Shown in pieces: positions 33,354 through 41,442 of a stretch of DNA of 64,000 nt. The translations under genes and the position numbers were made by a program. The DNA comes from Microbispora sp. NBC_01189 (GTDB lineage Bacteria; Actinomycetota; Actinomycetes; Streptosporangiales; Streptosporangiaceae): assembly GCF_036010665.1 (NCBI RefSeq), contig NZ_CP108581.1, positions 875,501 through 939,500 on the forward strand. The letters are read 5' to 3'. Under the pieces are notes generated by a model. That model saw only the letters and a program-made list of their open reading frames with translations. It searched no databases and was not told where the DNA came from. Every line of letters starts with the position of its first letter. Within the stretch, counting starts at the first letter, position 1.

Positions 33354-34861
33354 GAGATGGCTCCGCTCGCGATCGTCTCCGTGAGTCTGTCGGTGGTCAG
33401 GCCCTCGTCGTTGTCCAGCTCGGCGACCAGCCGGCGGTCGCGCAGCACGCCGACCTTGTGGCTGAGCCGCAGCACCTCCTCCAACTCGGCGGAGATGAAC
33501 AGCACGGCCATCCCGCCGTCCGACAGCTCGGCGACCAGACGCTGGATCTCCGCCTTGGCGCCGACGTCGATGCCCCGGGTGGGCTCGTCGAGGATGAGCA
33601 GGCGGGGCTCCAGGATCAGCCAGCGGGCCAGCAGCACCTTCTGCTGGTTGCCGCCGCTCAGGTTCCGGACCAGCTGCTCGGGATTGGCCGGGCGGATGTT
33701 CAGCGCGGAGATGTACTTGTCGACCAGCTCGTCCTGCCTGCGTCGCGGGATCGGCCTGGTCCAGCCCCGGGCCGCCTGCAGCGCCAGGATGACGTTCTCC
33801 CGGACCGTGAGGTCGGGGATGAGCCCCTCCGTCCGCCGGTTCTCCGAGCAGAAAGCGATCTTGCGGGCGACCGCCGAACGGGGCGTGCGCAGGCTGACCG
33901 CCTGACCGTCGATCTTCAGTGCGCCGGTGCCCGCGTGGTCGGCGCCGAACAGCAGCCGGGCGATCTCCGTACGGCCCGAGCCGAGCAGCCCGGCCAGGCC
34001 GACGACCTCCCCCTCGTGGATGGTGAGCGTGAACGGCTCGATCGCACCGGACCGCCCCAGCAGCTCGGCCTCGACCAGCGGCGCGGCCTCATGGGCGGGC
34101 GGGCGGCCCTCCAGCTTCTCCAGGTCGGCCAGCTCGCGGCCGATCATCTTGCCGACCAGCTCGACCTGGCTCAGCTCCTTGGTGAGGTACTCCCCCACGA
34201 GCGTGCCGTTGCGCAGGATCGTCATGCGGTCGGAGATCTCGTAGATCTGGTCGAGGAAGTGCGAGACGAACAGGATCGCGATGCCCTGCTCCTTGAGCCG
34301 GCGCATCACCCGGAAGAGCTGGGCGACCTCCCCCGCGTCCAGGCTGGAGGTGGGCTCGTCCAGGATGAGCACCTTCGCGTCGATGTCCACCGCCCGCGCG
34401 ATCGCGACCATCTGCTGGATGGCCAGCGAGTACGACGACAGCGGCGCCGACACGTCGAGGTCGAGGTCGAGACGGGAGAGGATCTCCTCCGCCCGGCGGC
34501 GCGTCTTCTTCCACTGGATCCGGCCGAGCCGGCGCGGCTCACGGCCGATGAAGATGTTCTCCGCCACCGAGAGGTTGGCGCAGAGGTTGACCTCCTGGTA
34601 GACGGTGCTGATGCCCGCCTGCTGGGCGGCCAGCGGGCTGGAGAAGGCGACCCGCCTTCCCTCCAGCTCGATCTCGCCGGCGTCGATGTCGTAGACGCCG
34701 GTCAGCACCTTGATGAGCGTCGACTTGCCGGCGCCGTTCTCACCCATCAGGGCGTGCACCTCTCCCGGCAGCAGCCGGAAGTCGACGTCGTCCAGCGCCT
34801 TCACGCCGGGGAACTGCTTGCCGATCCCGCTCATCCGCAGGATCGGCGCGGGCGCGGCCAT
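33350..34861 (-). CDS. Double-domain sugar ABC ATPase (YtfR/AraG/RbsA type)
   Basis: 503 residues with two nucleotide-binding domains. Domain 1 (about 7-245) has Walker A GENGAGKST and Walker B VLILDEPTSSL with a degenerate signature (SYSLAIQQM). Domain 2 (about 260-500) has a degenerate Walker A (GLLGSGRTE) but an intact LSGGNQQK and LLILDEPTRGIDVG. This asymmetry is normal for pentose importers. Start ATG 34861 follows GAGAGGGG. A 12-bp intercistronic hairpin separates it from the binding-protein gene. Confidence 0.95.
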   Translation of the reverse strand: MAAPAPILRMSGIGKQFPGVKALDDVDFRLLPGEVHALMGENGAGKSTLIKVLTGVYDIDAGEIELEGRRVAFSSPLAAQQAGISTVYQEVNLCANLSVAENIFIGREPRRLGRIQWKKTRRRAEEILSRLDLDLDVSAPLSSYSLAIQQMVAIARAVDIDAKVLILDEPTSSLDAGEVAQLFRVMRRLKEQGIAILFVSHFLDQIYEISDRMTILRNGTLVGEYLTKELSQVELVGKMIGRELADLEKLEGRPPAHEAAPLVEAELLGRSGAIEPFTLTIHEGEVVGLAGLLGSGRTEIARLLFGADHAGTGALKIDGQAVSLRTPRSAVARKIAFCSENRRTEGLIPDLTVRENVILALQAARGWTRPIPRRRQDELVDKYISALNIRPANPEQLVRNLSGGNQQKVLLARWLILEPRLLILDEPTRGIDVGAKAEIQRLVAELSDGGMAVLFISAELEEVLRLSHKVGVLRDRRLVAELDNDEGLTTDRLTETIASGAIS

Positions 34862-34897
34862 AGCGGAGCCCCTCTCTCGTCCTCATCACTGTCGCGG

Positions 34898-34930
34898 CAC
34901 CGGGCCGCCCCGGGAAGAGGCGGCCCGGTG
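34898..34930 (-). terminator. Intercistronic hairpin after the binding-protein gene
   Basis: Perfect 12-bp stem CACCGGGCCGCC/GGCGGCCCGGTG with a 9-base loop and no T run. Likely a partial terminator or an mRNA-end stabiliser that leaves more binding protein than membrane parts (inference). Confidence 0.65.
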
Positions 34931-34949
34931 AGGAAAGCAGTGCTTACGA

Positions 34950-35945
34950 TCAGTACTGGCGGTTGGGCAGGGCCTCCTTGGCCTGCTCCTGGGTGAAGGT
35001 GGTCTCCTCGGTCACCACGCGCGGCGGAACCTGCTCGCCCTTGACGACCTTCTTCGCGAGGTCCATCAGCTGGGGGCCAAGCAGCGGGGAGCACTCGACG
35101 ATGTAGTTGATCTTTCCGTCGGCGAGGGCCTGCATGCCGTCGTGCACCGCGTCAACGGTGATGATCTTGATGTCCTTGCCCGGGACCTTGCCCGCGCCCT
35201 CGATCGCCTCGATGGCGCCGAGGCCCATGTCGTCGTTGTGCGCGTAGAGCACGTCGATCTTGGGGTTGGACTTGAGGAAGGCCTCCATGACCTCCTTGCC
35301 CTTGGCCCGGGTGAAGTCGCCGCTCTGCGAAGCGATGACCTTGAACTTCGGATCGGCCGAGATGACGTCGCCGAAGCCCGCCTTGCGGTCGTTGGCGGGC
35401 GCCGAGCCGGTGGTGCCCTGCAGCTCGACGATGTTCACCGTGTCCTTGCTGTCCTTGTACTCGTCGACCAGCCACTGGCCGGCCTTCTTGCCCTCCTCGA
35501 CGAAGTCGGAGCCGAGGAAGGTCTTGTACAGGCTGGTGTCCTTGGAATCCACGGCCCGGTCGGTCAGGATGACCGGAATCTTCGCGGTCTGGGCTTCCTT
35601 GAGCACGGTGTCCCAGCCCGACTCCACGACCGGCGAGAAGGCGATCACGTCGACCTTCTGCTGGATGTAGGAGCGGATGGCCTTGATCTGGTTTTCCTGC
35701 TTCTGCTGGGCGTCGGAGAACTTCAGGTCGACGCCGGCCTCCTTGGCCGACTCCTGGACGGACTTGGTGTTGGCGGTACGCCAGCCACTCTCCGCGCCGA
35801 CCTGCGAGAAGCCCATAACGATCTTGTCGTCGCCACCGCCGGACGAGCCGCCGCTGGCCGACGTGTCGCCGTCGCCACCGCCACATCCGGCCATCGTCAG
35901 GGCGGTAGCGCCCGCCAGGATCAGTGCCGAGATCCTCTTCAACAC
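34950..35945 (-). CDS. Furanose-binding lipoprotein, YtfQ-like
   Basis: 331 residues. An N-terminal signal with lipobox LTMAGC, so it is anchored to the outer face of the membrane. The mature part closely follows E. coli YtfQ, which binds galactofuranose and arabinofuranose: GFSQVGAESGWR, QQKQENQIKAIRS, ILTDRAVDSKD, VELQGTTGS and SQSGDFTRAKGKEVMEAFL. Linkage to araBDA argues for L-arabinose in its furanose form. GTG 35945 has AAAGGA eight bases upstream. A perfect operator lies 20 bases before the start. Confidence 0.94.
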   Translation of the reverse strand: MLKRISALILAGATALTMAGCGGGDGDTSASGGSSGGGDDKIVMGFSQVGAESGWRTANTKSVQESAKEAGVDLKFSDAQQKQENQIKAIRSYIQQKVDVIAFSPVVESGWDTVLKEAQTAKIPVILTDRAVDSKDTSLYKTFLGSDFVEEGKKAGQWLVDEYKDSKDTVNIVELQGTTGSAPANDRKAGFGDVISADPKFKVIASQSGDFTRAKGKEVMEAFLKSNPKIDVLYAHNDDMGLGAIEAIEGAGKVPGKDIKIITVDAVHDGMQALADGKINYIVECSPLLGPQLMDLAKKVVKGEQVPPRVVTEETTFTQEQAKEALPNRQY

Positions 35946-35965
35946 TGGGGGGATCCTTTCATCGC

Positions 35966-35979
35966 TGTTAGCGCTAACA
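35966..35979. promoter_or_regulatory. LacI-type operator before the transporter-ara operon
   Basis: TGTTAGCGCTAACA is a perfect 14-bp palindrome. It sits between the repressor stop and the binding-protein start, next to a TTGATC -35-like box (about 36000-36005), where it would overlap the -10 region. Confidence 0.85.
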
Positions 35980-36024
35980 CAGGTCAGGTGGTCAGCGCCG
36001 ATCAATTGGTTGATTTCCGTACGG

Positions 36025-37047
36025 CTAGCGCACGCCGGTCGTGCTTCCCCTTCGTACGAACTGGGGAGGCACCACGAGCCGTTCATAGGGCAACGGCTCG
36101 TTCGACTCGATCTGCCGGAGCAGCACGTCGATGCTGCGCCTGCCGACGGCCCCGAAGTCCTGTCTTATGGTGGTGAGCGGTGGGGAGAAGAACTCCGACT
36201 CAGGGATGTCGTCGAAGCCCACGATGCTGATCTGCTCGGGGACCTTCACCCCCTCCTCCGTGAACGCCCGCAGCAGGCCGAGCGCCATCTGGTCGTTGGC
36301 GACGAACACCGCGGTGACGTCGCCGACCATCGCGGCGAGGTGCTTTCCGGCCTGGTAGCCCGATCGAGGACTCCAGTCTCCGGTCAGCAGGTCGGGTACG
36401 CGGCGCCCCGCCTCGGTCAGCACCGCGCGCCAGCCCTCACATCGCCCTTCGGCCTCCAGCCAGTCAGCGGGGCCGCTGACATGCCAGACGGTCTCGTGGC
36501 CGAGGCCGAGCAGGTGCGAGGTCGCCAGCCTGGCTCCCTCGACCTGGTCGACGCTCACCACGGAGACGTCGCCCTGATGCCAGCCCTCGACGGCCACGGC
36601 GGGCATGCCCGCCGGCAGGTCGTCGAGCGCACGGGCCGCCGATCGCTGCGGAGCGACGACGACGATGCCGTCGACGCCCTGCTCGGCGAGGTAGCCGATC
36701 GCGTCGTTCACGCCGGCCCTGTCAATGGTCCGCAGGCTCACGATGCTCACGAAGTAGCCCGCGTCCCTGGCGGCCTGCTCGATTCCGTATACCGTGCTCG
36801 CCGGGCCGTACAGCGTCGTATCGAAGCTGACGACGCCGAGCGTGCGCGAGTGCTTGGTGACCAGTGCCCGGGCGACGAGGTTGCGGCGGTATCCGAGCTG
36901 GTCGATGGCCCGCATGACCCGGGTGCGGGTCTCTGCGCGGACGTTCGGGTGATCGTTGAGCACCCGCGAGACCGTCTGGTGCGACACTCCGGCCAGCCTG
37001 GCCACGTCGGCCATGACGGGCGGGCGGCGCTCGACGCTGGGTCCCAC
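36025..37047 (-). CDS. LacI-family arabinose repressor (AraR-type)
   Basis: 340 residues. N-terminal LacI HTH (MADVARLAGVSHQTVSRVLN) and hinge, then a periplasmic-binding-like sensor with GVVSFDTTLYGPAST, VFVANDQMALGLLRAF and GFDDIPESEFFSPPLTTIRQD. It is the natural owner of the five 14-bp operators around the ara genes, including one in front of itself. Arabinose as inducer is inferred. GTG 37047 has GAGAGGAG five bases upstream. A paralogue lies at 40396. Confidence 0.93.
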   Translation of the reverse strand: MGPSVERRPPVMADVARLAGVSHQTVSRVLNDHPNVRAETRTRVMRAIDQLGYRRNLVARALVTKHSRTLGVVSFDTTLYGPASTVYGIEQAARDAGYFVSIVSLRTIDRAGVNDAIGYLAEQGVDGIVVVAPQRSAARALDDLPAGMPAVAVEGWHQGDVSVVSVDQVEGARLATSHLLGLGHETVWHVSGPADWLEAEGRCEGWRAVLTEAGRRVPDLLTGDWSPRSGYQAGKHLAAMVGDVTAVFVANDQMALGLLRAFTEEGVKVPEQISIVGFDDIPESEFFSPPLTTIRQDFGAVGRRSIDVLLRQIESNEPLPYERLVVPPQFVRRGSTTGVR

Positions 37048-37077
37048 GGTCGCTCCTCTCAACTGCTTGGCAAGAAC

Positions 37078-37091
37078 TGTGAGCGTTAACA
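37078..37091. promoter_or_regulatory. LacI-type operator before the repressor gene
   Basis: TGTGAGCGTTAACA, 31 bases upstream of the repressor GTG; it matches the perfect site at 35966 at 12 of 14 positions. Suggests autoregulation. Confidence 0.75.
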
Positions 37092-37203
37092 CAACCCTGC
37101 GTCAAGGAGGTCGCCGGTCACGGTCCGGTTACGCCGAAACATCCTGGTAACACCTTATTGACGGACATGCCGCATGGACCTTTACTGATGACCGAAACTC
37201 GGC

Positions 37204-37248
37204 TGTTAACGCTCACCCATCGTCCCGGACGCTATGTTATCGTTAACA
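37204..37248 (+). promoter_or_regulatory. Pair of LacI-type operators at a rightward promoter
   Basis: TGTTAACGCTCACC (37204-37217) and TGTTATCGTTAACA (37235-37248), spaced 31 bases centre to centre, follow a TTGACG box near 37156. An ATG with a good ribosome site is at 37272. This is the layout of a repressed arabinose-responsive promoter reading rightward. Confidence 0.7.
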
Positions 37249-37271
37249 GAACCATTTGAGGAGCGCATCGC

Positions 37272-37652
37272 ATGACCGGAAACACCTGTTCACCGGCCTC
37301 GCGGGCATCCGCGGTGGTTACTTGGCGTGATGATGGGATCGTCCTGAGCGGTGGCAGTGGGCGCCGGCGCGGGCGGCATCCCAGCGGCATCCCATCCGTG
37401 CCCGAAACCATCGCCCCGCTCCCAGCGGATCCAGCCGCCGACCCACTTGGGCATGCCTGCTCGTTACCGGCATTCCGGTCGCTACCCGCCCTTCGAGGCC
37501 GCCGCCATCGGCCTTCAGACGGACCCCCGGGGGCAGAACCACGGCGAGCAGGAAGCTCGGCGAACAGAGCGACGCACTTCCGCGCCGGTCGCCGCTTCCA
37601 CTCCTGCGGGCACGGCTTCCACTCCTGCGGGCGCCGATCCACGTGTCGGTGA
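37272..37652 (+). pseudogene. ORF after the orphan ara-type promoter; probable remnant
   Basis: 126-codon frame. ATG 37272 has a GAGGAG-like site and lies 24 bases after the second operator, so translation start signals are good. The product (MTGNTCSPASRASAVVTWRD, then Arg/Pro/Ser-rich) resembles no family, has atypical codons and ends against the HNH gene on the other strand. I read it as the 5' end of a lost arabinose-regulated gene, or a chance frame. The stretch 37300-37650 holds nothing else I recognise. Confidence 0.35.
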
Positions 37653-37653
37653 C

Positions 37654-40215
37654 TCATTCGCGTCGCCGGGGGGTGCGGGGGTTGCGGTAGGTGAAGGCCC
37701 AGCGGTCGTCGCCGATCTTTCGGCGGGTGTAGCGGGTGGGGTGGCGGTAGCGGTCGCGGTTGTGGAACTGGCAGGCCGGCCCGAGCAGCTTGAGGTCGGT
37801 CAGCCCGCCGCTGCACCAGTCCTCGGAATGGTCGATCTGGCACAGGGTGGCGGGCAGGGGGCAGCCGTCGACCCAGCAGGTGGCGTACCGGGCGAAGACG
37901 GCCCGGCGCTGGGCGGGGGTGGCCAGGCGGACCTTGCGGCCCATGTCCAGGACCTGCCCGGCGGCGTCCATGACGATCCGGACAAGGGTGCTGGTGCGGG
38001 CCAGCCGGTGCACGCTGACAACGGGCAGCAGGTGCCCGGTCGCCAGGATCAGCCCCGGCAACCCCCGCAACCACACCCCCGGCGGCACATTGCCGCGCGC
38101 TCCCGGCGGACAGTTCACCCCCACCCCCGGCGGAGCATCCGCTCCCACCCCCGCCCAGGCATCACTGCCAGGCCAAGCGTCGCCTCCCGGGCAGGCGCTC
38201 CCTTCCGCATCCGGCGGGGCGTCGGGCCCGGGTGGGGGATCAGGGGCATGCGTCTGCTGCGGGCGTGCCTGCTGTGGGCGTGCCTGCTGCGGGGGTGCCT
38301 GCTGCGGGCGCCGCGCTCGGTTTCTGCGGTGTCCTCGCTCGATGCCCTCTTCCTGAGTGCCGGGGTCGTCGTCAGAGTCGTCGTCAGAGTCGTCGTCAGG
38401 GTCGGCGTCAGGGTCGGCGTCAGGGTCGGCGGCGTGGTCCTGCTCGACGTCATCGCAGTCGCGCAGGTCGCCGCGCTCGTGGCCGCGCTCGTGGCCGCGC
38501 TCGTGGCCGCGCTCGTGGCCGCCGGTCGGGTCGAAGTGCGGCCAGGCGGCAGCCGGACCGTCCATGGGCGAGCTACCGGCGGCCGCGCGGCCGGTGACAG
38601 GCTCCAGCCCGTCAGCGCCCCCACACGCGCCCACACCCGCGGCGGCATCCGCGCCCGCACCCGCGGCGGCATCCGCGCCCGCACCCGCGGCGGCATGGGA
38701 GGCGGCACTGGGCGCGGCAGGGGAGGTGTCGTCTCCTGCGGAGGACGCGACGGCCGAGCTACCGTCCTCGCCGGCTGAGCGATCCCCGCCCGCCGGGGGC
38801 ACAGTGGCTGTGCGTTCGGGGCCGATGGCTGTGCGTTCGGGGCTGACGGCCGATGGCCGTGTGCCCGGCTCCGCACCCGCTGGCTCTTCGTCTGGCTCTT
38901 CGTGTGGTTCTTCGCCGGCGGGCTCCTCAATGGTGGGCTCGCCATCGTCGATGATGGGCTCATCGACGTCCGAGGGAGTGCCACTCGGAGGGTCGTCGGG
39001 GAGGGACTCGGCGTTGACCAGCACCAGAAGCTCGGTCACGATCTTGTTCTCCAGGAACGCGATCAACGCGTCCGCGTTCCGCACACTCAACGGCCGGTCG
39101 TCACCCTCGGCCTTGGGCTTGGCGTAGACGTCCAGCATGTGCTGCAACCGCGCGGCGGCCTCCACCGGCAGGTAGAACTCCCCCTCCAGCCCGCCGCCCT
39201 TACGCCGGCGTACCCGGAAGAACCGGCGATCGAAATCCGCCTGCTCGTCCTTCTCATGCCCGTCAGGGTCGAGCACCGCGCGTAGGTACCGCCCCGCCTT
39301 GGCCACCTCCGCCGCACCCGCCGACTTCGCCAACTCCAGCAGAATCCGCTCAGCCGTCGCCGCCTGCTCATCGGTCAACCCCGCGGTGGCCGTGCAGATC
39401 GCCTCCACGACCCCCTCCGCCAGGCCACCCTCCGCGAACCGGCGGCGGACCTTCGGCAGACGGGGCAGTTCCGTGCTCATCGTCAACAGGCGCCCCGCCC
39501 CCGCGGGCGTCATCCCCCCAGCGCTGCGCAGCCACAACTTCGTGGACGCATGCCCATGGTGCTTCGCCTCCCCGGCCCGGTGGACACGGCCCACCCGGGC
39601 CGCCAACGCCGAAGTGATCCGATCACGGACCGCAAGCAACTCCTCGGCCTCGGCCAGACACACACCCGCGTCCTCAGGCACCGGCACCAACGCCACCGCC
39701 CGCGCCGCCTCGACAAGAGCCGCCACCGCCACCCACGACGACGACCCCGCGCCAGAAGCACCACCGGCAGCGCCACCAGGGACGTCACCGGGCGCGCTGC
39801 CGCCATCCCGATCACGTTCCGCACCCCGATTCCGGCCAGCGTCGCCCCGGCCAGCGCCAGAGACGCCGTCAGACACGCCATCGGAAGCACCAGCCGAAAC
39901 GCCACCGGACGCATCACCGCCACCCCGAGGAGTGCCATCAGGAGAAGCGTCACTCGCGGTTTCGTCGCCGTCGACGAGGTCGTCACCGGGAGCGGCACCG
40001 GAACGAGTCGCGAATACCTTAATCAAGGCGGGATTCGCCGGGGCATCGAGCCGGCCGGCGCGCTTTCGCCCTTCGGAATCGGCGATCGGTACGAATTCAC
40101 GGGCCAGAGAACCCTCTGAAGACCACAGTGGTGAGCCGGCGACCAGACGATCCCACCAGTCGTCGGCGATATCTGAATCATGCGGGTGATCAGGACCGAA
40201 GTCGGACAGATCCAT
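37654..40215 (-). CDS. DUF222-HNH endonuclease family protein (13E12-like), low-complexity expanded
   Basis: 853 residues. DUF222 (about 185-400) includes the GEAKHHGHASTKLWL and RMLTxST-like LLTMSTELPRLP segments. The C-terminal HNH nuclease (about 775-835) has CWVDGCPLPA, CQIDHSEDW, CSGGLTDL and CQFHNRDR, with the paired cysteines and His residues intact. Between DUF222 and the HNH approach lie about 300 residues of Pro/Ala/Asp/Gly repeats not usual for the family. ATG 40215 follows AAGGGG. The family resembles mycobacterial REP13E12 proteins, which are repeated and linked to prophage insertion; cell role is unknown. Codons end mostly in G, unlike neighbours. Confidence 0.85.
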   Translation of the reverse strand: MDLSDFGPDHPHDSDIADDWWDRLVAGSPLWSSEGSLAREFVPIADSEGRKRAGRLDAPANPALIKVFATRSGAAPGDDLVDGDETASDASPDGTPRGGGDASGGVSAGASDGVSDGVSGAGRGDAGRNRGAERDRDGGSAPGDVPGGAAGGASGAGSSSWVAVAALVEAARAVALVPVPEDAGVCLAEAEELLAVRDRITSALAARVGRVHRAGEAKHHGHASTKLWLRSAGGMTPAGAGRLLTMSTELPRLPKVRRRFAEGGLAEGVVEAICTATAGLTDEQAATAERILLELAKSAGAAEVAKAGRYLRAVLDPDGHEKDEQADFDRRFFRVRRRKGGGLEGEFYLPVEAAARLQHMLDVYAKPKAEGDDRPLSVRNADALIAFLENKIVTELLVLVNAESLPDDPPSGTPSDVDEPIIDDGEPTIEEPAGEEPHEEPDEEPAGAEPGTRPSAVSPERTAIGPERTATVPPAGGDRSAGEDGSSAVASSAGDDTSPAAPSAASHAAAGAGADAAAGAGADAAAGVGACGGADGLEPVTGRAAAGSSPMDGPAAAWPHFDPTGGHERGHERGHERGHERGDLRDCDDVEQDHAADPDADPDADPDDDSDDDSDDDPGTQEEGIERGHRRNRARRPQQAPPQQARPQQARPQQTHAPDPPPGPDAPPDAEGSACPGGDAWPGSDAWAGVGADAPPGVGVNCPPGARGNVPPGVWLRGLPGLILATGHLLPVVSVHRLARTSTLVRIVMDAAGQVLDMGRKVRLATPAQRRAVFARYATCWVDGCPLPATLCQIDHSEDWCSGGLTDLKLLGPACQFHNRDRYRHPTRYTRRKIGDDRWAFTYRNPRTPRRRE
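38246..38700. repeat. Cluster of in-frame tandem repeats inside the DUF222-HNH gene
   Basis: Successive arrays: a 15-bp CTGCGGGCGTGC-type repeat (about 38250-38310), a 12-bp GTCGTCGTCAGA-type repeat encoding DDDS/DADP (about 38365-38435), a 12-bp CGCTCGTGGCCG repeat encoding HERG (about 38470-38520), and GC-rich units encoding AGADAA (about 38625-38695). All keep the frame. Confidence 0.85.
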
Positions 40216-40395
40216 CACATCCCCTTCGCCGATTCGAAATCCTGTACTAATTTTTCCACGAACCGGCATCAGGCGACAACCGCGCACCGGGATATGTTGG
40301 AGCTACAGGCGATGGACGATAGCGGCGACGCAGATGTTTCTATTCAGCCCATTGGTACTGAGATAGCCGACCTTTGAAAACGACCCGCGTCCCGG

Positions 40396-41442
40396 TTACG
40401 CCGAGGACGGTGGAGCGGCGGCCGTGCTCTCCCTGACCACGAGTTCAGGCTCGACCAGGCGCGCCGGCCCGACGTCACGGTCGGCGATGCGGTGCAGCAG
40501 GAGCCGGAACGCCTGCCGGCCTAGCTCGCCGAAGTCCTGCCGCACCGTGGTCAGCGGCGGCCAGAAATACGCCGCCTCCGGCACGTCGTCGAACCCCGCC
40601 ACGCTCACATCCTCGGGCACCCGCCGCCCCGCCTCCCGCAACGCCCGCAACACCCCCATCGCCATATGGTCATTGGCCACGAACACCGCCGTCACCCCGC
40701 CATCGGCCGCCAGCCGCCGCCCCAGCTCATAACCCGACGACGCCGTCCAATCACCCACCAACGGCTCGGGCACCACCCGGCCCTCCGCCTCCAGCACCGA
40801 CCGCCACCCCGAAAGACGACCACGCGAATCCACCCAGTTCGGCGGACCCGCCACATGCCACACCGTCCGATGCCCCAAACTCAGCAGATGCCGCGTCGCC
40901 CGCGCCGCCCCCGCCACCTGATCGACCGCCACCACCGGCACCGGCACATCCCCGCCCCCACCCACCACCACCACCGGCAACCCCGCCGGAAGCTGCCGCA
41001 CCCCCTCGGCCGCCGACTCATGCGGCGCCACCACGATCACCCCGTCCACCGACTGCGACCGCAGCCGATCCACCCCCCGCCCGATCCACCGCCGATCCAG
41101 CACCGGCAAACTCGCGATGCTCACCAGATAGTCACTGTCCCGGGCCGCCTGCTCCACCCCGAACAACGTCGACGCCGGCCCGTACAACGTGGTGTCGAAA
41201 CACACCACCCCCAGCACCCCCGACCGCCCGGTCACCAGCATCCGCGCCGCCGAGTTCGGCCGGTAGTCCAGCTCCCGCACCGCCGCCAGCACCCGCTCCC
41301 GCGTCTCCGGACGCACCTTCTCCGGAGCGTTCAGCACCCGCGACACCGTCATCGCCGACACCCCCGCCAGCTCCGCGACGTCTTCCATGACCGCCGCCCT
41401 CGGGCGCTCGGCCGGGCTCTCTCCAGGCCGCACCATCGTCAT
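40396..41442 (-). CDS. Second LacI-family regulator, paralogue of the ara repressor
   Basis: 348 residues. MEDVAELAGVSAMTVSRVLN HTH, then a sensor domain that follows the 36025 protein motif by motif (GVVCFDTTLYGPAST, VFVANDHMAMGVLRAL, GFDDVPEAAYFWPPLTTVRQD). Codons strongly favour G at the third base (GTG, GCG, CGG, GGG), while the first repressor favours C. This points to a separate origin. Start ATG 41442, with ATG 41436 possible. Target genes are unknown; only a weak operator-like site lies upstream at 41708. Confidence 0.9.
   Translation of the reverse strand: MTMVRPGESPAERPRAAVMEDVAELAGVSAMTVSRVLNAPEKVRPETRERVLAAVRELDYRPNSAARMLVTGRSGVLGVVCFDTTLYGPASTLFGVEQAARDSDYLVSIASLPVLDRRWIGRGVDRLRSQSVDGVIVVAPHESAAEGVRQLPAGLPVVVVGGGGDVPVPVVAVDQVAGAARATRHLLSLGHRTVWHVAGPPNWVDSRGRLSGWRSVLEAEGRVVPEPLVGDWTASSGYELGRRLAADGGVTAVFVANDHMAMGVLRALREAGRRVPEDVSVAGFDDVPEAAYFWPPLTTVRQDFGELGRQAFRLLLHRIADRDVGPARLVEPELVVRESTAAAPPSSA

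What the first reader, a model, noticed from the sequence alone, without database searches (positions are those of the whole stretch)
37150..37653. Orphan arabinose-controlled promoter with no recognisable gene behind it
A TTGACG box, two operators and an ATG with a ribosome site form a complete start for a rightward gene. The following frame resembles no family and runs into the HNH block within 380 bases. A secreted arabinofuranosidase or similar gene would be expected in that place, so a gene may have been lost when the block arrived.
Basis: inference. Interest (0 to 1): 0.5.

Follow-up and report, generated by a model that had tools for sequence, protein, structure and literature searches.

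The report
Arabinose promoter outliving its lost enzyme
This is the probable arabinose-controlled on-switch of a secreted plant-sugar-releasing enzyme; the enzyme gene has been deleted here, as in several relatives, but the switch is still intact, which suggests that it may still have a job.

Summary
The window is from a Microbispora. Its araR1 gene (LacI family, beside araBDA and an ABC transporter) faces a rightward promoter: TTGACG 37158, TTTACT 37181, operators O1 37204 and O2 37235, ribosome site 37258, ATG 37272. In 7 of 15 Microbispora genomes the same control region precedes a secreted ~1270-aa GH51 alpha-L-arabinofuranosidase. Here only an eroded start remains; the 126-codon frame is not coding. 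The gene has eroded about ten times in the family; apart from this clade and G006, no HNH gene was found in the loss loci. Sister genome G011 lacks the HNH block and the enzyme too, so the block is not shown to be the cause. Unexpectedly, in three related genomes without the gene (window, G009, G011) the -35, both operators and ribosome site have 0 of 40 variable positions against 35 of 82 elsewhere (P=4e-8); three other loss lineages show no such protection. The relic may still be under selection, perhaps as auxiliary operators of araR1 (spacing 126 and 31 bp). That last part is inference.

The parts
36025..37092 (-). araR1, LacI-family repressor gene (longest frame; I think a start at GTG 37047 more likely, because the operator 37078-37091 lies upstream of it)
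   Evidence: Pfam LacI 1.7e-19, Peripla_BP_3 1.4e-31; orthologues at 85-99% in 13 of 14 other Microbispora genomes
37078..37091 (.). Operator in the araR1 promoter (TGTGAGCGTTAACA); by my reading it lies between the araR1 -35 (37100-37105, minus strand) and a weak -10
   Evidence: present in all 13 genomes scanned
37158..37163 (+). -35 hexamer TTGACG of the rightward promoter
   Evidence: contiguous in 11 of 13 aligned Microbispora genomes
37181..37186 (+). -10 hexamer TTTACT (TTAACT in the 12 other aligned genomes)
37204..37217 (.). Operator O1, TGTTAACGCTCACC
   Evidence: 126 bp from the araR1 operator in 12 of 13 genomes, 127 in G014
37235..37248 (.). Operator O2, TGTTATCGTTAACA
   Evidence: 31 bp from O1 in all 12 genomes where it was found (not in G006)
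37258..37263 (+). Ribosome-binding site GAGGAG of the lost gene
   Evidence: identical in 11 of 13 aligned genomes (not G006, G010)
37272..37301 (+). Remnant of the GH51 start and signal-peptide codons (23 of 30 bases identical to G013)
   Evidence: 1 of 3487 ATG/GTG-started 30-mers of the window reaches 23, consistent with the site itself; blastn matches to relatives run to 37299
37272..37652 (+). 126-codon open frame; judged not coding
   Evidence: GC at codon positions 0.69/0.73/0.69 against 0.72/0.48/0.89 for araR1; no Pfam match
37654..40287 (-).
   Evidence: Pfam DUF222 1.2e-25; 40 matches to PF02720 in this genome
40396..41442 (-). araR2, LacI-family paralogue that bounds the slot on the right
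   Evidence: Pfam LacI 1.4e-21; araR2 stands on the far side of the slot in the 11 other Microbispora loci where both regulators were found on one contig

Best explanation
The site is the former promoter of a secreted GH51 alpha-L-arabinofuranosidase, repressed by the divergent LacI-type regulator araR1 through O1 and O2 and presumably released by arabinose (inducer inferred). In the common ancestor of this species, G009 and G011 the gene was deleted and eroded, leaving a degenerate start. A multicopy DUF222/HNH gene now fills the slot here and in G009. The control elements were kept: they show no change in 40 positions while the sequence between them has drifted. The most likely reason (about 0.4) is that O1 and O2 still help araR1 control itself: three operators lie 126 and 31 bp apart, 12.0 and 2.95 helical turns, on one face of the DNA. 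Shown: the lost gene, its remnants, repeated loss, feature conservation. Inferred: the inducer, DNA looping, and the reason for retention.
For: The same promoter, operators and ribosome site precede an open GH51 frame of 1271-1291 codons in 7 of 15 Microbispora genomes (O2 has one mismatch in G002); Pfam ASD1_dom, Alpha-L-AF_C, GH43_C2; PDB MgGH51 1.5e-76. Start remnant. Decay series: G005 keeps residues 2-38 with a stop plus 1058-1193, and G010 keeps 6-38 and 200-234. Tree: G010 is sister to GH51+ G012 (100), and G006 to GH51+ G003/G008 (100), so these losses are separate from that of the trio. Family: of 34 genomes with an exact O1-O2 pair, 23 have the intact gene, 10 a broken or missing one, 1 another context. 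Retention: trio 0/40 against 35/82, P=3.9e-8; with the -10 added 1/46 against 34/76, P=4.7e-8; with the start codon too 2/49, P=1.8e-7; window-G011 pair alone P=8.9e-5; -35 plus ribosome site alone 0/12, P=0.002. Loss before the split: where the 7 intact genes agree, the window and G011 share the same changed base at 7 of 29 columns in the first 32 and 20 of 55 later, against 5 and 9 where only one of them differs. Other loss lineages against intact sisters: 6/40 vs 9/82, 3/40 vs 11/82, 12/40 vs 28/82, no protection. Spacing.
Against: The looping role does not explain why the -35 and ribosome site are also unchanged. G001 keeps araR1 without O1 and O2, so they are not essential there. Two Streptosporangium species with the relic show no significant protection (1 of 40 feature positions among 8 changes in 108, P=0.13), and pairs with a working gene give only P 0.013-0.45, so the test has little power outside the trio. 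The 40 positions were chosen after the alignment had been seen. In G006 the sequence past O1 may not be homologous at all. The spacers diverge about ten times faster than fourfold sites of araR1 (2.4% window-G011), which is unexplained. That the loss predates the G009 split rests on few shared changes (5 of 29 and 9 of 55 columns), in an alignment that is loose past the start.
Confidence: 0.85

Rival explanations
1. Plain relic: the promoter and operators are just not yet decayed and do nothing.
For: The gene is gone; in G010 and G006, and less clearly G005, the same elements change about as often as the spacers; the Streptosporangium relic shows no significant protection.
Against: In the trio 35 of 82 other columns vary but none of 40 feature columns, so there has been time for decay.
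Confidence: 0.3
2. The gene was lost separately and recently in each of the three genomes, so the elements are conserved because they worked until recently.
For: The G009 remnant shares only weak sequence with the window past the first 27 bases (E=0.06). Weak matches to the amino-terminal coding region of intact genes remain past the start (window with G003 and G002, E 0.002-0.014).
Against: Window and G011 share 146 bp of sequence from the start on (E=1.8e-21) and most of their changes against the intact genes (20 shared, 9 in only one of them); all three share 5 changed bases among 29 comparable columns at the start.
Confidence: 0.15
3. The rightward promoter still makes a useful transcript: an arabinose-induced antisense RNA against the HNH gene or araR2, or a leader RNA.
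For: The -35 and ribosome site are also unchanged (0 of 12, P=0.002); the next two genes to the right are on the other strand.
Against: No Rfam match at E 1; downstream sequence and frame are not conserved; the HNH target is absent in G011.
Confidence: 0.15
4. The 126-codon ORF is a real, novel gene.
For: It has a good ribosome site and ATG.
Against: No codon-position GC signal; 26 to 126 codons in the trio with indels; no Pfam family.
Confidence: 0.03
5. Arrival of the HNH block destroyed the gene.
For: The HNH gene occupies the slot in the window, G009 and G006, all without the enzyme gene.
Against: G011 has no block; eleven other loss loci have no HNH match in the stretches held: G001, G004, G005, G010, G101, G321, G324, G167, G177, G180, G205.
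Confidence: 0.15

Closest known systems
Secreted GH51 alpha-L-arabinofuranosidase locus of Microbispora and Nonomuraea (the intact relatives found here; MgGH51, PDB 6zps, is the closest solved sequence)
   Same: Same araR1-divergent promoter, operator pair and ribosome site
   Different: The enzyme gene is absent here
AraR of Corynebacterium glutamicum (recalled; Kawaguchi et al. 2009 seen only as a citation in a passage of PMC5928203) and AraQ of bifidobacteria (PMC5928203, passages seen)
   Same: Arabinose genes under a local repressor in Actinobacteria; AraQ is LacI-family and predicted on araBDA
   Different: Different regulons; binding motifs were not compared here
Divergent araR/araE control in Bacillus subtilis (recalled, no call)
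   Same: May work like it: repressor operators in both arms of a divergent region
   Different: That AraR has a GntR-type DNA-binding domain (recalled); no homology of the sites claimed
Loss of secreted enzymes as public goods (Black Queen idea; search listing and abstract starts only)
   Same: Uptake genes and a shorter GH51-like gene kept, secreted enzyme lost repeatedly
   Different: No fitness evidence here

Membership tests
Relic promoter of a lost GH51 gene | Same promoter precedes the intact gene in relatives | tested here: met
   7 of 15 Microbispora genomes
Relic promoter of a lost GH51 gene | Remnant of the gene at the site | tested here: met
   23 of 30 start bases; blastn matches run to 37299
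Relic promoter of a lost GH51 gene | No intact copy of this gene elsewhere in the genome | tested here: met
   the five matches in G000 are partial and weak (E 9e-10 or worse), four in two ORFs over 1700 codons (residues 34-251) and one in a 519-codon frame (residues 620-731)
Relic promoter of a lost GH51 gene | Control elements drift as if neutral | tested here: not met
   0 of 40 against 35 of 82; so 'relic' describes the origin, not certainly the present state
LacI-family AraR regulon | LacI DNA-binding and sugar-binding domains beside araBDA and an ABC transporter | tested here: met
   Pfam for araR1, the binding protein and araA; araB, araD, ATPase and permeases are read from the ORF translations
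LacI-family AraR regulon | Repressor binds these operators and is released by L-arabinose | not testable with these tools
   Needs gel shift and transcript data
Protein-coding gene (the 126-codon ORF) | Codon-position bias and conservation | tested here: not met

The most novel reading that the evidence does not exclude
The promoter has outlived its gene because it has been taken over: its operators (and possibly its transcription) now serve the repressor's own circuit, so that a clade keeps a complete, arabinose-controlled start signal with no gene as a working regulatory part.
Probability: 0.4. Interest if true: 0.6.

Novelty: new member of a known kind. Interest (0 to 1): 0.42.

Why it matters
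Gene erosion is common, but this slot is a replicated natural experiment: one regulated promoter, one secreted enzyme, about ten separate losses in one family, with repressor and transporter usually kept. It lets one ask how fast control sites decay once their gene is gone and whether some are retained for the regulator's own use. It may also be a case of losing a secreted public-good enzyme while keeping uptake, and it warns that an intact promoter with a ribosome site and ATG need not mean a gene.

Tried and rejected
The ORF as a new gene: rejected. A known RNA family at the site: none at E 1. A sigma-70 consensus scan listed no promoter. The same conservation test on two Streptosporangium species gave no signal (P=0.13; there the features were -35, -10, O1 and O2), and on five pairs with a working gene P 0.013-0.45. 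A species tree from rpoB was dropped because 5 of 15 genomes gave no match and four gave two; the tree uses up to five genes of the locus instead, with weak nodes (44, 47, 64, 64) around G014, G013, G005, G007 and G002. Whether the HNH copies at the slot in the window/G009 and in G006 come from one insertion was not settled. Regions L191 and L192 were fetched and not used. Literature: Microbispora with arabinofuranosidase and orphan-promoter/gene-loss wording gave listings with no evident report of this; absence is claimed for those two searches only, whose listings were capped at 10 of 14 and 8 of 26 papers.

Full report
What is there. On the minus strand stand araA, araD, araB, two ABC permeases, an ATPase, a sugar-binding protein and araR1, a LacI-family regulator (araA, the binding protein and the two regulators were checked against Pfam, the others are read from their translations). 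To the right of araR1, facing away from it, is the element in the finding: TTGACG 37158, 17 bp, TTTACT 37181, O1 37204, O2 37235, GAGGAG 37258, ATG 37272. A 126-codon frame ends at 37652; the DUF222/HNH gene (37654-40287, minus) and a second LacI gene, araR2 (40396-41442, minus), follow.

What used to be there. In 7 of 15 Microbispora genomes (G002, G003, G007, G008, G012, G013, G014) the space between araR1 and araR2 holds the same promoter, operators and ribosome site followed by an open frame of 1271-1291 codons (O2 has one mismatch in G002 and G014 has one extra base at the -35). It begins with a signal-peptide-like stretch (MSRKAWSLALSAA..., my reading) and carries ASD1_dom (6.5e-63), Alpha-L-AF_C, a GH43_C2-type domain and a bacterial Ig-like domain (two of the seven proteins tested). 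The closest solved sequence is MgGH51 (1.5e-76). So the missing gene is a secreted GH51 alpha-L-arabinofuranosidase. In G000 no substantial part of it is found. The first 30 bases at 37272 match the start in G013 at 23 positions; one of 3487 ATG/GTG-started 30-mers of the window reaches that value, which is what the site itself would give. Past that, weak matches to the amino-terminal coding region remain (E 0.002-0.04). A GH51-like frame of 506-589 codons is matched in all 15 genomes (residues about 619-794 of the query), so only the secreted enzyme was lost; that this frame is intracellular is my inference from its length.

How it was lost. The other genomes show stages of decay: G005 keeps residues 2-38 with a stop plus 1058-1193; G010 keeps 6-38 and 200-234; G006 has O1 but no O2, an HNH gene and a sugar-transporter operon; G001 has 211 bp and neither O1 nor O2; G004 has only a 51%-identical fragment of an araR1-like gene. 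On a tree of locus genes G010 is sister to intact G012 (100) and G006 to intact G003/G008 (100), apart from the window/G011/G009 trio (100). Outside the genus the intact gene stands beside araR1 in five Nonomuraea loci, while in Planotetraspora, Planobispora longispora and Planomonospora sp. ID67723 the first long frame behind the operators is a ChvE-like sugar-binding protein (name from its sequence, not tested). An exact search for the O1-O2 pair found 34 of 341 family genomes, reversed control 0. Of these 34, 23 have an intact gene (6 Microbispora, 17 Nonomuraea), 10 a broken or missing gene (the trio, Microtetraspora G101, Streptosporangium G321 and G324, Nonomuraea G167, G177, G180, G205), and one (G229) has neither the gene nor araR1 in the 3.2 kb read. 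In G157, G168 and G177 no araR1 was found in the stretch of up to 1.5 kb upstream, so these pairs may stand elsewhere. A search for exact pairs misses loss lineages in which the pair has decayed, such as G005, G006 and G010. The remnants differ from case to case, so about ten losses are independent; this number is my count, not a formal reconstruction.

The HNH block. In G011, the sister of the window genome, the sequence matching window 37421 is followed after 13 bases by the sequence matching 40391: no HNH gene, and no enzyme gene either. G009 has the HNH gene and shares about 60 bp of its 3' flank with the window, a flank that the other copies listed in G000 lack. The simplest reading is one insertion before the trio split and a loss in G011. 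Whether the enzyme gene went before or with that insertion cannot be told. Eleven other loss loci (G001, G004, G005, G010, G101, G321, G324, G167, G177, G180, G205) have no HNH match at E 1e-8 in the 6.5-13.5 kb held, so the block is not needed for the loss. The G011 and G009 contigs end inside araR2, probably because a second copy stands beside another transporter operon.

What is odd. Among the trio, the -35, O1, O2 and ribosome site have 0 variable columns of 40; the rest of 37150-37271 has 35 of 82; hypergeometric P=3.9e-8. I chose these positions after seeing the alignment and left out the -10 (1 of 6 variable) and the start codon (1 of 3); with them in, it is 2 of 49 against 34 of 76, P=1.8e-7. 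The window-G011 pair alone gives 0 of 40 against 21 of 82, P=8.9e-5. The operators alone give P=2.9e-6 and the -35 plus ribosome site alone P=0.002. There are no gap columns before the ATG and 39 in 37275-37420. Three other loss lineages compared with intact sisters show no protection: G010-G012 6/40 against 9/82 (P=0.82), G005-G012 3/40 against 11/82 (P=0.26), G006-G003 12/40 against 28/82 (P=0.4; past O1 G006 may not be homologous). So, as far as tested, only in the trio do the control elements look selected after the gene was gone. Limits: five pairs with a working gene give only P 0.013-0.45 because they are close, and the Streptosporangium pair gives P=0.13. The argument also needs the loss to predate the trio. 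For window and G011 this is well supported: they share 146 bp (E=1.8e-21) and, where the seven intact genes agree past the start, the same changed base at 20 of 55 columns against 9 where only one of them differs. For G009 it is weaker: all three share 5 of 29 columns at the start and 9 of 55 later. The spacers also diverge about ten times faster than araR1 fourfold sites, which I cannot explain.

How it may work now. The araR1 operator and O1 are 126 bp apart in 12 of the 13 genomes scanned and 127 in G014; O1 and O2 are 31 bp apart in the 12 that have O2. At 10.5 bp per turn these are 12.0 and 2.95 turns, so the three sites would face one side of the DNA in this genus. In Nonomuraea the spacing differs. 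O1 still fits the consensus TGTTARCGCTCACY in all six loss genomes that keep the region (window, G009, G011, G005, G006, G010). O2 or the ribosome site is damaged in G006 and G010, the -35 in G006, and G005 has one mismatch in O2, like intact G002. This suggests that O1, and in the trio both, may act as auxiliary operators for araR1. The unchanged -35 and ribosome site are not explained by that and leave room for a live transcript.

Verdict. The finding is real and well guessed: a relic of a known kind, with a modest and testable surprise in the retention of its control elements.

Noticed in passing
window 37118-37132: A direct repeat TYAC-N7-TYAC (TCACGGTCCGGTTAC and relatives) upstream of the araR1 -35 is conserved in the 14 Microbispora loci aligned and in several other genera, also in G001 which lacks the rightward promoter. 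Possible activator site; identity unknown.
   Followed up: partly
window 37654-40287: The DUF222/HNH gene belongs to a multicopy family: 40 matches in this genome, 51 in G010, 4 in G013. Listed copies in this genome resemble each other over the ORF but not over the flanks, as if the reading frame alone were homogenised or mobile.
   Followed up: partly
window 40396-41442 and G000:C1:6348435-6349430: araR2-like genes occur twice in this genome, one beside the slot and one beside a ChvE-type transporter operon; contigs of G009 and G011 break inside them.
   Followed up: partly
L064 / G101:C61: Microtetraspora fusca has the secreted GH51 reduced to a 95-codon frame that joins the signal-peptide region to the Ig-like end, with promoter and operators intact.
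   Followed up: no
L099: Bailinhaonella has a similar promoter, one operator, ribosome site and ATG in front of a 139-codon frame of unusual composition and then araR2: a possible further orphan start.
   Followed up: no
window 34200-37100: The arabinose genes are 97-100% identical between the window and G011 in most 100-bp steps (two steps at 93%), while the promoter and remnant next to them fall to 87-70%.
   Followed up: no
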